Assembly: GCA_024711025.1 (NCBI GenBank)
Contig: JANJTP010000019.1
Location: 74,005-117,448, forward strand
Length of the DNA stretch: 43,444 nt
Source: Solirubrobacteraceae bacterium
GTDB taxonomy: Bacteria; Actinomycetota; Thermoleophilia; Solirubrobacterales; Solirubrobacteraceae
Direction: 5' to 3'
The notes under the pieces were generated by a model. It made no database searches. It was not told where the DNA came from and saw nothing but the letters and a program-made list of their open reading frames with translations. The translations under genes were made by a program, and so were the position numbers. Numbering within the stretch: position 1 is the stretch's first letter; each line of letters begins with the position of its first letter. Positions 32,575 through 36,637 of this stretch are shown in pieces.

Positions 32575-33297
32575 ATGCGCCTCGCCAAGCACCTCGCCCA
32601 CGCGGGGGTCGCCTCCCGCCGCGCCGCCGAGCGGCTGATCGCCGACGGCCGTGTGACGGTCGACGGGCTCGTCGCGGCCGATCCCGCGCGGGACGTCAGC
32701 GGCGCGGAGCGGATCGAGGTCGACGGCGAGCCGATCGGCCGACCCAAGCGCGAGCGCGTCGTCTATGCGCTGAACAAGCCCGCGGGCGTCGTGTCGACCG
32801 CGAGCGACACGCACGGCCGCCTGACCGTCGTCGAGCTCGCGCGGTCCGCCGGCGCGCCGCAGGGGCGGCGCCTCTACCCCGTGGGGCGGCTCGATGCCGA
32901 CAGCACCGGCCTGATCCTGCTGACCGACGACGGCGAGCTCGCCCATCGGCTCACGCACCCCAGCTTCGAGGTGACCAAGACCTACCGCGTGCGGATCGGC
33001 GGGGCGCGCATCGGCGACGGGGCGCTGCGCGCGCTGCGCGCCGGCGTCGAGCTCGAGGACGGGCGCACGGCGCCTGCCCGCGTGCGTCGCGTCGGCTCCG
33101 GCGAGCTCGAGCTCGTGCTGCGCGAGGGACGAAAGCGCCAGGTGCGGCGCATGTGCGAGGCGGTCGGCCATCCCGTGCTGCGCCTGCGGCGGGTCGGCAT
33201 CGGCCCGCTGGAGCTCGGCGGGCTCGCCGAGGGGCGCACTCGACGGCTGACGCCCGCCGAGGTCGACGCCCTGCGTCGGGCGGCCAAGGTGGCATGA
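32575..33297 (+). CDS. rluB: 23S rRNA pseudouridine synthase RluB/RsuA family
   Basis: Isomerises uridine to pseudouridine in rRNA. ATG 32575; 240 aa. An N-terminal S4 RNA-binding domain (MRLAKHLAHAGVASRRAAE, residues 1-55) is followed by the RsuA/RluB/E/F catalytic domain with YALNKPAGVVST and the catalytic Asp107 in GRLDADSTGLILLT, then REGRKRQVRRMCEAVGHPV. In many Gram-positives the gene follows scpAB directly; here the cupin and rlmN genes intervene. The exact target uridine (RluB 2605 type) is inferred. Its stop overlaps the aroH start. Confidence 0.92.
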   Translation: MRLAKHLAHAGVASRRAAERLIADGRVTVDGLVAADPARDVSGAERIEVDGEPIGRPKRERVVYALNKPAGVVSTASDTHGRLTVVELARSAGAPQGRRLYPVGRLDADSTGLILLTDDGELAHRLTHPSFEVTKTYRVRIGGARIGDGALRALRAGVELEDGRTAPARVRRVGSGELELVLREGRKRQVRRMCEAVGHPVLRLRRVGIGPLELGGLAEGRTRRLTPAEVDALRRAAKVA

Positions 33298-33674
33298 TGC
33301 CCCCCTCGATGCGCCTGCACGCCCTGCGGGGGGCCACAACCGTCGAGCGGAACGACCGTGAGCAGATCCTCGCCGCGACCGAGGAGCTGATGGCTGAGCT
33401 GCTTGCGCGCAACGAGCTCGTCCCCGACGACGTCGTGAGCTGCATCTTCACGATGACCGAGGACCTCGACGCGGAGTTCCCCGCCGTCGCCGCGCGCGCG
33501 ATCGGCTTCGATCGCGTCCCGCTGCTCTGCGTCCGCGAGATCGACGTCCCGGGCGCGATGCCGCGGGTGATTCGCGTGCTCGTCCAGTATCACGCCGGCG
33601 AGGGGCATCGCGCGCGCCACGTCTACCTGAGAGAGGCGCGGGCGCTGCGCACGGACCTCGAGGCCGCGCAGTAG
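33297..33674 (+). CDS. aroH: Chorismate mutase, AroH type
   Basis: Trimeric AroH-fold enzyme that converts chorismate to prephenate, the entry to Phe and Tyr. 125 aa from ATG 33297; ATG 33294 and 33309 are also possible, the last matching the family N terminus best. All active-site residues known from the Bacillus subtilis enzyme can be aligned: Arg in LRGATTVE, Cys and Glu in PLLCVREIDV, Arg in RVIRVLV and Tyr in RHVYL. Most well-studied actinobacteria use an AroQ-fold mutase, so the AroH fold is worth noting. Followed after 16 nt by a cupin gene. Confidence 0.93.
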   Translation: MPPSMRLHALRGATTVERNDREQILAATEELMAELLARNELVPDDVVSCIFTMTEDLDAEFPAVAARAIGFDRVPLLCVREIDVPGAMPRVIRVLVQYHAGEGHRARHVYLREARALRTDLEAAQ

Positions 33675-33690
33675 CCCGGGAGGCGACGAG

Positions 33691-34149
33691 GTGTCCGGCG
33701 AGCAGCCACCGGCGCGCGGCGAGCAGCCGCAGGAGACGCGCGCGCCGATCACGGGCGACGGCTGGGCCGCCGCGAACCTGCACGCGCTCGGCGAGGGCTA
33801 CGGCTTTCGCAAGATCCGCTCCGCCCTGGGCGTGACCGCGTTCGGCGTCAACGCGCTGGTCCTGCCGCCGCGCTTCGAGGCGAGCCCGCACTTTCACGAG
33901 GAGCAGGAGGAGCTCTACCTCGTGCACCAGGGGCTCGTCGAGATCGAGCTTGGCGACGGCGCGATCGTCCGGCTCACGCCGGGCGGCGTCGCGAGGGTCG
34001 ACCCGTCGACCGTGCGCCGGCTGCGCAACGTCGGCTACGAGGACGCCGTCGTCGTCATCGTCGGCGGCAAGGGCGGCTACGTGGGCCGCGACGGGCGGCT
34101 GCCGGAGGGCGTCGAGCGCGGCGGGCGGCCGATCGACGATTCGTCCTGA
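33691..34149 (+). CDS. Cupin-domain protein in the aromatic amino acid block
   Basis: Single-domain cupin of 152 aa from GTG 33691 (GGGAGG 6 nt upstream). Barrel motif 1 is ASPHFHEEQEELYLVHQGLVEIEL-like (HFHEEQEELYLV), with the His-X-His and Glu metal ligands; motif 2 is LTPGGVARVDPSTVRRLRN, with no obvious fourth ligand. The N-terminal 20 residues are polar and probably disordered. It lies 16 nt after aroH and 12 nt before hisC, so it is likely cotranscribed with them. No function can be given. Confidence 0.75.
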   Translation: MSGEQPPARGEQPQETRAPITGDGWAAANLHALGEGYGFRKIRSALGVTAFGVNALVLPPRFEASPHFHEEQEELYLVHQGLVEIELGDGAIVRLTPGGVARVDPSTVRRLRNVGYEDAVVVIVGGKGGYVGRDGRLPEGVERGGRPIDDSS

Positions 34150-34161
34150 TTGACTAGCGGC

Positions 34162-35262
34162 GTGGCGATCGAGTTCAGCGAGCGCGTCAGGCGCATCCCC
34201 GTCTACCCGGCCGCGGCCGGCTACGCGCTGCCGGAGGAGGTCGCTCACCTCGCATCCAACGAGTCGCCCGATCCGCCGCTGCCGGCGGTCGTCGAGGCGA
34301 TCGAGCGCGTGCTTCGCGGGCTCAATCGTTACCCCGACCCGAAGGGCGCGGCGCTGCGCTCGGCGCTCGGCGATCGCTACGGCGTGCCCGCGACGCGGAT
34401 CGCGCTCGGCAACGGCTCGGTCGACCTGCTGCTCGCGCTCGGCGACGCACTGCTCGAGCCCGGGGCGGAGGTCGTCTACGCGTGGCCGTCGTTCTCGGTC
34501 TACCCGCACCTCGAGGCGGCGTCCGGAGCGCGGGGGGTGCGGGTGGCGCTGAACAAGCGCGACGAGCACGACCTCGAGCGGATGCTCGAGGAGATCACCG
34601 TCGCGACGCGACTGGTGATCGTCAACAACCCGAACAACCCGACCGGCACCGCCCTCCCGCTGGCCGACCTGCGGGAGTTCGTGGAGCGTGTTCCGCGCCA
34701 CGTCTGCGTCGTGCTCGACGAGGCCTACTGCGAGTTCTCGACGCTCGACGACCCCGACGCGTCGGTCGACCTGCTGCGCCGGCACGCCAACCTCGTGCTG
34801 CTGCGCACGTTCAGCAAGGTCGGCGGGCTCGCCGGCCTGCGCGTCGGATTTGCCCTCTGCGGCAGCGCCGAGGTCGTGGGCGCCGTCGATCTGGTGCGCC
34901 AGCCGTTCTTCTGCAGTGCCGTAGCGCAGGCGGCTGCGATCGAGGCGCTGCGCCATCAGGACGCGATCGCCGCGCGCGTCGAGCGCACGGTGCTCGCGCG
35001 GGTCCAGGTAACCGACGGGCTTCGTGCGCTGGGGATCGAGCCGATCGCCTCGCAGGCCAACTTCGTCTGGTTCGCGCTGCCGACCTCGCCCGAGGGCTCG
35101 CCGCACGAGGTGGAGGGCCGCGTCGTCGCCGGCCTCGCCGAGCGCGGGATCCTCGTCCGATCGGGCAGCGCGCTCGGTCGCGAGGGGTGGCTGCGCGTCT
35201 CGTTCGGCACTCCGGCCGAGAACGCGCGCTTCCTCGCCGCGCTCGGCGACCTCTTGCCCTGA
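34162..35262 (+). CDS. hisC: HisC-family aminotransferase (histidinol-phosphate or aromatic aminotransferase)
   Basis: PLP fold-type I aminotransferase, 366 aa from GTG 34162; TTG 34150 is the alternative. Motifs: LASNESPDPPLPAV, LNRYPDPKGAALRSAL, LGNGSVDLLLAL, NNPNNPTGTALP, VVLDEAYCEF and the PLP-lysine motif TFSKVGGLAGLRVGF. By sequence it is HisC-like. No other his gene is nearby; it lies between chorismate mutase and DAHP synthase. HisC homologues in actinobacteria (Pat) act as phenylalanine/aromatic aminotransferases, so transamination of phenylpyruvate or 4-hydroxyphenylpyruvate is a likely, perhaps additional, role. A hairpin follows at 35276-35292. Confidence 0.88.
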   Translation: MAIEFSERVRRIPVYPAAAGYALPEEVAHLASNESPDPPLPAVVEAIERVLRGLNRYPDPKGAALRSALGDRYGVPATRIALGNGSVDLLLALGDALLEPGAEVVYAWPSFSVYPHLEAASGARGVRVALNKRDEHDLERMLEEITVATRLVIVNNPNNPTGTALPLADLREFVERVPRHVCVVLDEAYCEFSTLDDPDASVDLLRRHANLVLLRTFSKVGGLAGLRVGFALCGSAEVVGAVDLVRQPFFCSAVAQAAAIEALRHQDAIAARVERTVLARVQVTDGLRALGIEPIASQANFVWFALPTSPEGSPHEVEGRVVAGLAERGILVRSGSALGREGWLRVSFGTPAENARFLAALGDLLP

Positions 35263-35292: not shown

Positions 35293-35346
35293 CGAACGCG
35301 CGCGGCTTCCGGTGGCGCGCCGAACTGTGCTTCAATCAGGGCTCGG

Positions 35347-35463
35347 ATGCGCCGCGAACCCGACCATGCCACGTGCACCTGCGTCGTCGGCGCGCCGTCG
35401 GGCTTCGGCTTCGCCTATCCGGGCTTCGGCTTCGCCTATCGCTGCGGCTGGCGATTTAGCTAG
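35347..35463 (+). CDS. Aromatic-rich leader peptide upstream of aroF (putative attenuator)
   Basis: A 38-codon ORF, ATG 35347 to TAG 35461-35463, in the 325-nt gap before aroF. Residues 20-37 read FGFAYPGFGFAYRCGWRF: Phe at 20, 22, 27, 29 and 37, Tyr at 24 and 31, Trp at 35. The first half (residues 1-19) has none. Such clustering of the end-product amino acids of a pathway, directly upstream of its first enzyme and directly followed by hairpins, is the layout of ribosome-mediated attenuation (as for trp and pheA leaders). FGFAY occurs twice through a 21-bp repeat (35401-35421 and 35422-35442). TTCAAT (35331-35336) is a weak -10 candidate. Not supported by any search. Confidence 0.7.
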   Translation: MRREPDHATCTCVVGAPSGFGFAYPGFGFAYRCGWRFS

Positions 35464-35543
35464 GCGTTCGGCCGGTCCCCTGGGACCTCCGCACAGGGCC
35501 TCCGGGCCGAGCGCCGAGACTCATCCGGCCGCCGTCGCGGCCG
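35463..35543 (+). promoter_or_regulatory. Hairpin region of the putative aroF attenuator
   Basis: GGCGTTCGGCC (35463-35473, starting at the last base of the leader stop codon) can pair over 11 bp, one G-U, with GGCCGAGCGCC (35505-35515). Inside lies GGTCCC (35474-35479) with GGGACC (35482-35487). Downstream, CGGCCGC (35526-35532) pairs with GCGGCCG (35537-35543) around CGTC. A ribosome at the end of the leader would mask the first arm. The first two are therefore sensitive to where the ribosome stalls; which hairpin terminates is not clear, since none has a U-tract. The remaining stretch to aroF holds GAGAAGGAAG and GAAGGA, the ribosome binding region. Confidence 0.55.
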
Positions 35544-35587
35544 CCACCAGTCGGAGCAGCACGTAGCGAGAAGGAAGTGATGAAGGA

Positions 35588-36633
<1,046 letters not shown>

Positions 36634-36637
<4 letters not shown>

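What the first reader, a model, noticed from the sequence alone, without database searches (positions are those of the whole stretch)
35347..35543. Unannotated Phe/Tyr/Trp-rich leader ORF and hairpins upstream of aroF: a candidate aromatic amino acid attenuator
Seen: a 38-codon ORF (35347-35463) with 5 Phe, 2 Tyr and 1 Trp, all within the last 19 residues (FGFAYPGFGFAYRCGWRF then Ser and stop), followed without a gap by an 11-bp stem (35463-35473 with 35505-35515), a nested 6-bp stem and a GC hairpin at 35526-35543, then aroF-tyrA-aroA with 4-nt overlaps. Known: leader peptides rich in the end-product amino acid control trp, phe and his operons by ribosome stalling. Inference: this leader senses charging of three tRNAs at once and controls the first enzyme of the shikimate pathway. 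The Ala/Gly-rich proteome of this genome makes such a cluster of Phe and Tyr unlikely by chance. The mechanism is not settled: the 2:3-type stem and the last hairpin are not clearly mutually exclusive, so a stalled ribosome may instead melt the 35463-35515 stem directly.
Basis: partly seen in the sequence, partly recalled or inferred. Interest (0 to 1): 0.88.

Follow-up and report, generated by a model that had tools for sequence, protein, structure and literature searches.

The report
Leader peptide controlling aromatic amino-acid synthesis
Just before the gene for the first enzyme of aromatic amino-acid synthesis, a whole order of soil bacteria (Solirubrobacterales) keeps a tiny gene whose last codons call for tyrosine, tryptophan and phenylalanine and run straight into an RNA hairpin, which is very probably a ribosome-read gauge of all three amino acids, built differently from the textbook attenuators.

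Summary
The 38-codon ORF (35347-35463), the stem starting in its stop codon (35463-35473/35505-35515) and the aroF-tyrA-aroA operon are there. It is not chance: 136 non-redundant relatives, all from the order Solirubrobacterales as far as found, have the same element upstream of DAHP synthase. All end W-R-F-X-stop (one R-R-F); 135/136 hold Tyr, Phe and Trp codons within 16 codons. Aromatic codons are enriched in frame only. The core TGGCGATTT[AC]N[CT]TAGGCG is near-invariant, including the rare codons CGA and TTT. The stem covaries. An extended -10 box sits 13-21 nt before the uORF start in most, so the leader is probably near-leaderless. The DAHPS behind the element was swapped between type I-beta and type I-alpha at one locus.

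Most likely ribosome position sets whether the single stem forms, with Rho-dependent termination as the off state (inferred). Known relatives in kind: C. glutamicum aroR, trpL/pheL. New variant of a known kind.

The parts
35328..35336 (+). predicted extended -10 promoter element TG-C-TTCAAT, hexamer 16 nt before the uORF ATG (predicted start of transcription about 35342-35345)
   Evidence: In 91/136 relatives a TGnTACAA-type box lies before an in-frame uORF start, mostly 13-21 nt, against 1/136 for reversed sequence; the window copy is a weaker version (TTCAAT).
35347..35463 (+). leader ORF, 38 codons, MRREPDHATCTCVVGAPSGFGFAYPGFGFAYRCGWRFS-stop; near-leaderless if the predicted promoter is right
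   Evidence: conserved C-terminal aromatic run and WRF-X-stop in 136 relatives
35401..35442 (+). two 21-nt direct repeats encoding GFGFAYP / GFGFAYR: the aromatic regulatory codons of this copy (a local duplication, not conserved as such)
   Evidence: sequence read directly; relatives have other arrangements such as YAYAYAW
35449..35466 (+). near-invariant core TGGCGATTTAGCTAGGCG: codons Trp-Arg(CGA)-Phe(TTT)-Ser, TAG stop and first bases of the stem
   Evidence: positions 1-18 invariant or nearly so in 136 sequences except position 11 and rare changes at 1, 10, 12 and 18; one copy per genome, near zero for reversed pattern
35463..35473 (+). 5' arm of stem P1, starts with the last base of the stop codon
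   Evidence: RNAalifold and pair counts: 6 of 11 pairs with changes on both sides, slid controls far lower; 101/122 better than all 20 shuffles
35505..35515 (+). 3' arm of stem P1
   Evidence: duplex test 101/135 better than all 20 shuffles
35568..35577 (+). predicted Shine-Dalgarno region of aroF, not sequestered by P1
   Evidence: sequence; predicted accessibility of the SD region unchanged by P1 state in 65/74 relatives
35588..36637 (+). aroF, type I-beta DAHP synthase with N-terminal ferredoxin-like domain: the regulated gene
   Evidence: TIGR01361, NF006421 above cut-off; PF00793 + PF18152
36634..37683 (+). tyrA, prephenate dehydrogenase with ACT domain, overlaps aroF by 4 nt
   Evidence: PF02153, PF20463, PF01842
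37683..38987 (+). aroA, EPSP synthase (third gene; true start may be the GTG a few bases earlier)
   Evidence: PF00275

Best explanation
A ribosome-mediated attenuator of the DAHP synthase operon. Supported by comparison: a short, probably near-leaderless uORF ends in codons for Tyr/Phe/Trp, then W-R-F-X-stop, and a single covarying stem P1 begins inside the stop codon at a fixed distance from the invariant Trp codon. Inferred: when any of the three aromatic aminoacyl-tRNAs is scarce, the ribosome halts on an aromatic codon up to and including that Trp; its leading edge then stops just short of P1, so P1 folds and the operon is transcribed. When all are plentiful the ribosome runs through to the stop codon, lies over the 5' arm of P1 and keeps it open; the C-rich, terminator-less leader behind it is then the likely entry point for Rho, and transcription ends early. 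The frozen rare codons CGA and TTT probably set a programmed slow step next to P1. The sign of P1 (on) and the use of Rho are inference, not shown.
For: uORF end conserved in 136 non-redundant sequences; aromatics 14-54% at codons -9 to -1 in frame versus mostly 0-6% in other frames; all three aromatics in 135/136. Rare codons favoured: TAT 46% of Tyr codons in the leaders against 4% in 41 aroF genes; TTT in the core 136/136 against 2%; CGA 136/136 against 6% (the search pattern fixed CGATTT, but one-mismatch searches found no other codon there). P1 covaries and is the only conserved helix. Promoter-like box just upstream of the uORF. Every core match in the order with enough flank precedes a DAHPS, of two different subfamilies, at the same hisC/tyrA locus. 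No aromatic-rich uORF with this core upstream of DAHPS homologues of another order of the class or of other Actinomycetota. C>G in the leader (uORF 41:27, after P1 37:29) where the DNA upstream is G>C, as expected of, but not specific to, Rho sites. Precedent: aroR attenuator of C. glutamicum aroF responds to Phe limitation (PMC11802643).
Against: No expression data. No terminator, U-tract or second hairpin found, so the off state is hypothetical. The frozen nucleotide core is more constrained than codon choice alone should need. The Phe codon at +2 would place a stalled ribosome over the base of P1, opposite in effect to the Trp codon. A possible second promoter between P1 and aroF (GTANNNT box in 31/74, control 7) would bypass the element. 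Most sister species of the same genus sampled lack it.
Confidence: 0.66

Rival explanations
1. Nascent-chain arrest of the TnaC type: the peptide ...W-R-F-X held at the stop codon senses a free aromatic amino acid (or a release-factor effect), and the arrested ribosome over P1 decides transcription or mRNA fate.
For: W-R-F sits at fixed distance from the stop codon in 135/136 and aromatics crowd the residues that would lie in the exit tunnel; P1 starts in the stop codon.
Against: Synonymous positions of CGA and TTT are frozen, which a peptide signal does not need; the residues further up vary in number and order; the last residue varies (S/I/T/R).
Confidence: 0.13
2. Translational attenuation as in mycobacterial poly-Cys uORFs: P1 or a linked structure hides the aroF ribosome-binding site and a stalled ribosome frees it.
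For: Near-leaderless uORF architecture as in those mycobacterial systems (Canestrari 2020 as cited in PMC13236596).
Against: Predicted accessibility of the SD region hardly differs with P1 formed or blocked: 65/74 unchanged, medians 0.56 and 0.57; P1 ends a median of 82 nt before the ATG; neither arm nor the core pairs with the region after P1.
Confidence: 0.07
3. The frozen core plus P1 is a binding site for a protein or small RNA (or an RNase cleavage site) and the uORF mainly keeps ribosomes on it; the aromatic codons fine-tune.
For: Core is frozen at nucleotide level, including wobble positions, and pairs with nothing in cis; GAUUU fits the general RNase E preference (own knowledge).
Against: In-frame aromatic enrichment and TAT preference need no such site; core does not resemble boxA of the rRNA operons of these genomes (GGTCTTTGAAAAC); no Rfam family matches.
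Confidence: 0.1
4. Chance ORF or remnant coding sequence; no regulatory role.
For: GC-rich genomes are full of spurious ORFs.
Against: 136 relatives, covarying stem, promoter-like box, in-frame aromatic codons, one copy per genome.
Confidence: 0.01

Closest known systems
aroR leader peptide of the aroF operon, Corynebacterium glutamicum (Neshat et al. 2014, as described in PMC11802643; first reported in PMC4046766)
   Same: Actinomycetota; short leader ORF with aromatic codons upstream of a DAHP synthase gene; attenuation by stalling under Phe limitation reported.
   Different: Its leader holds Phe-Tyr-Phe and no Trp is reported; Tyr had no effect there. The Solirubrobacterales element has all three aromatics, a frozen 18-nt core and a single stem. 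The core was not found outside the order in a 396-genome phylum sample. Homology not tested residue by residue.
trpL and pheL attenuators of Enterobacteria (classical ribosome-mediated transcription attenuation)
   Same: Regulatory codons for the end product near the end of a leader ORF; ribosome position relative to a stem after the stop codon.
   Different: No 1:2 hairpin, no 3:4 terminator, no U-tract; three amino acids rather than one; nucleotide core frozen.
uORFC-13-1 motif upstream of aroF in Acholeplasma (PMC8632094)
   Same: Candidate uORF attenuator with Phe codons before aroF.
   Different: Different phylum, next to an intrinsic terminator, other sequence and structure.
Leaderless poly-Cys uORF attenuators of mycobacteria (Canestrari et al. 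2020, cited in PMC13236596)
   Same: Leaderless or near-leaderless uORF in an actinobacterium, with regulatory codons (own knowledge of that paper, which was not held).
   Different: There the downstream ribosome-binding site is hidden; here prediction shows no such effect.
ilvB-II motif of Corynebacterium (PMC10272879) and actinobacterial trp/ilv/leu/cys leaders (PMC1262725)
   Same: Conserved uORF attenuators in Actinomycetota.
   Different: Other amino acids; the 2005 survey found no conserved RNA structure upstream of phenylalanine or tyrosine operons in Actinobacteria.

Membership tests
Ribosome-mediated attenuators (general kind) | short translated leader ORF rich in codons of the end product, upstream of the biosynthetic gene | tested here: met
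   135/136 leaders with all three aromatics, in frame only; translation itself not shown
Ribosome-mediated attenuators (general kind) | conserved RNA structure placed so that ribosome position decides its folding | tested here: met
   P1 starts in the stop codon, fixed spacing from the Trp codon, covaries
Ribosome-mediated attenuators (general kind) | expression responds to charging of the cognate tRNAs | not testable with these tools
   needs expression data or a reporter
Classical trpL/pheL-type transcription attenuator | mutually exclusive antiterminator and terminator stems | tested here: not met
   neither arm of P1 has another conserved partner up- or downstream
Classical trpL/pheL-type transcription attenuator | intrinsic terminator with U-tract | tested here: not met
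   no terminator-like site in the window; no T enrichment after P1; TTTT within 60 nt in 15/122
Translational attenuator (poly-Cys uORF type) | near-leaderless uORF | tested here: inconclusive
   extended -10 box, mostly 13-21 nt before the start codon, in 91/136; transcription start not mapped
Translational attenuator (poly-Cys uORF type) | structure that hides the downstream Shine-Dalgarno | tested here: not met
   65/74 unchanged; prediction only
C. glutamicum aroR attenuator | common descent (shared sequence of leader and stem) | tested here: inconclusive
   core/stem model finds only the window's order among 396 phylum genomes, with strict filters; aroR sequence itself not aligned
T-box or known riboswitch | match to an Rfam family | tested here: not met
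   no match with E up to 1
TnaC-type arrest peptide | ligand-dependent stalling at the stop codon | not testable with these tools
   needs in vitro translation or toeprinting
boxA/Nus-factor site | similarity to boxA of the rRNA operons of the same lineage | tested here: not met
   rrn boxA here is GGTCTTTGAAAACT, unlike GCGATTTANCTAG

The most novel reading that the evidence does not exclude
A single-stem attenuator without terminator or hidden ribosome-binding site, reading the charge of three tRNAs at once: a frozen Trp-Arg(CGA)-Phe(TTT)-X-stop module acts as a fixed ruler and pause site at the foot of the stem, and the module has outlived replacement of the enzyme it controls by a different DAHP synthase subfamily.
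Probability: 0.35. Interest if true: 0.8.

Novelty: new variant of a known kind. Interest (0 to 1): 0.62.

Why it matters
It gives an order of little-studied soil actinobacteria, with more than 100 species carrying the element, a predicted control point for the shikimate pathway. It would be one leader integrating Tyr, Phe and Trp supply at the shared first step, where E. coli uses three separate enzymes and repressors. The frozen nucleotide core is a ready-made handle on an open question: how attenuators work in high-GC actinobacteria that lack U-tract terminators. Its persistence while the DAHP synthase behind it was exchanged shows regulation conserved above gene identity.

Tried and rejected
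Alternative partners for P1 arms and for the core in the uORF, the loop and the downstream region, tested against dinucleotide shuffles: none. SD sequestration: no consistent effect. Programmed frameshift past the stop: distance from core to aroF ATG is in no constant phase (distances, read by eye). boxA-like Nus site: rejected from rRNA operon leaders. Complementarity of the core to the 16S rRNA locus: 6-8 nt only, taken as chance. The local hairpin TGGC/GCTA inside the core seen in single folds is broken by the common AGC-to-ATC/ACC changes, so rejected. tRNA-like reading of GGCGATTTAGCT: considered, no partner for an acceptor stem, not pursued. Exact or one-mismatch core matches in Weissella, Gemmatimonadaceae, Robiginitomaculum, a Fimbriimonadales bin and G210 (L212, L174, L148, L210, L087) have no DAHPS beside them and are taken as chance. 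Bias noted: the 3' arm of P1 in the covariation alignment was chosen by complementarity, so the shuffles and the slid control carry the weight; and the 136 sequences were collected with CGATTT fixed, so invariance of those bases rests on the one-mismatch search and (looser pattern), while the covariance model found one TTC variant (L266).

Full report
What is there. The window is G000:C41:74005-117448 of a 3.1 Mb actinobacterial genome. The gene order is chorismate mutase, cupin protein, hisC-type aminotransferase, [element], DAHP synthase (type I-beta), prephenate dehydrogenase, EPSP synthase. No Rfam family matches.

Conservation. AroF was sought in 146 genomes of the family and the upstream DNA of the hits read. 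Most have a short ORF there ending in a run such as YAYAYAW-RFS-stop, followed by TGGCGATTTAGCTAGGCGCTCGG and a GC-rich stem. A pattern for the core (one mismatch allowed) was found in 131 of 399 genomes of the class, nearly always once per genome, nearly all in the window's order, with almost no hits for the reversed pattern; in the own genome the only close match is the one in question. A covariance model of core plus stem hit 11 of 396 genomes of the phylum, all in the same order. DAHPS homologues from another order of the class and from other Actinomycetota have no aromatic-rich uORF ending in this core.

The leader is read in frame. In 136 non-redundant sequences, aromatic residues make up 14-54% at each of the nine codons before the invariant Trp, against mostly 0-6% in the other two frames (one position 15%). 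Within the last 16 codons 135 of 136 have Tyr, Phe and Trp, median five aromatics. Codon choice is skewed to rare codons: TAT is 46% of leader Tyr codons but 4% in 41 aroF genes; the core Phe is TTT (2% in aroF), the core Arg CGA (6% in aroF). The 136 were collected with CGATTT fixed, but the one-mismatch search found no other base there; one divergent copy with TTC turned up by covariance model. The last sense codon varies: Ser 96, Ile 25, Thr 10, Arg 5. The core is therefore under selection both as codons and as nucleotides.

The stem. RNAalifold on a MAFFT alignment of 42 diverse sequences predicts one helix, P1; pair 20-89 has 17 sequences changed on both sides, and the structure beats slid versions by a wide margin (93.7% against 32-43% of cells paired; covariation score 0.257 against at most 0.099). 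P1 duplex energy averages -22.1 against -15.5 kcal/mol for shuffles. The loop is variable in length (24-90 nt) and sequence. Tests of every other pairing a classical attenuator needs were negative, there is no U-tract after P1, and the aroF Shine-Dalgarno is equally accessible with P1 formed or blocked in 65 of 74 relatives.

Promoter. TGCTACAA-type boxes are strongly enriched upstream of the uORF. Scored with a matrix, 91 of 136 have one before an in-frame start, most 13-21 nt from hexamer to start codon, against 1 of 136 in reversed sequence. Transcription would then start 0-9 nt before the uORF (general knowledge of -10 spacing). The window has TGC-TTCAAT at 35328-35336, 16 nt before the ATG.

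Gene swap. In many members the gene behind the element is not type I-beta (TIGR01361) but type I-alpha DAHPS (TIGR00034). The neighbours hisC and tyrA are the same. G017 carries both in tandem behind one element: a type I-beta gene without its N-terminal domain, then type I-alpha, then tyrA. The element has been kept while the enzyme was exchanged.

How it probably works. A ribosome with the invariant Trp codon in its A site has its leading edge about one base short of P1 (ribosome footprint from general knowledge), so stalls there or on the upstream Tyr/Phe/Trp codons leave P1 free; a ribosome at the stop codon covers the 5' arm. For a biosynthetic operon the expected sign is P1 = on. With no terminator, Rho is the most likely agent of the off state: the leader is C-rich and G-poor relative to the DNA upstream. 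These last steps are inference. A weak point is the Phe codon at +2, where a stalled ribosome would already invade P1.

Relation to known systems. An aromatic leader peptide (aroR, Phe-Tyr-Phe) before C. glutamicum aroF is known and responds to Phe limitation (PMC4046766, PMC11802643); an Acholeplasma aroF uORF motif has been proposed (PMC8632094). A 2005 survey of Actinobacteria found no conserved RNA structure before phenylalanine or tyrosine operons (PMC1262725). No paper describing this element was found in seven full-text searches of an open-access library, which is not proof of absence. I file it as a new variant of the ribosome-mediated attenuator kind, not as a member of the classical trpL type, since defining features of that type were tested and not met.

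Noticed in passing
G017, locus L317 (element at 496; DAHPS genes about 603-2512): Two DAHP synthases of different subfamilies in tandem behind one element, the type I-beta copy lacking its N-terminal domain: looks like an intermediate of gene replacement.
   Followed up: partly
L101, L102, L130 and several family hits that begin at query residues 54-87: Type I-beta DAHPS without the N-terminal ferredoxin-like (allosteric) domain; in L101, L102 and L130 the leader element is retained.
   Followed up: no
between P1 and aroF, 29-42 nt before the aroF ATG in relatives (e.g. L053, L061, L091): A GTANNNT box, often followed by TTYCCAGG, in 31/74 relatives (reversed control 7): possibly a second promoter that would bypass the leader.
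   Followed up: partly
genus g1 relatives G033-G048 (e.g. L011-L018, L022): Most same-genus genomes sampled, smaller than the window's, have no element; aroF follows another gene closely. The leader seems to have been lost with genome reduction.
   Followed up: partly
L266 (G150), 1414-1516: Divergent copy TGGCGATTCGTCTAG (W-R-F-V-stop) whose downstream gene looks like tyrA, with no DAHPS in between.
   Followed up: partly
window 33267-35262: Chorismate mutase (type I), a cupin protein and a hisC-like aminotransferase precede the element, so most of the aromatic branch is clustered here.
   Followed up: partly
window 35401-35442: Near-exact 21-nt tandem duplication coding GFGFAYP/GFGFAYR; in this species the aromatic codons were multiplied by duplication.
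   Followed up: no
loops of P1 in L117-L123: In some type I-alpha members the P1 loop is short, unstructured and pyrimidine-rich, like a Rho-loading stretch.
   Followed up: no
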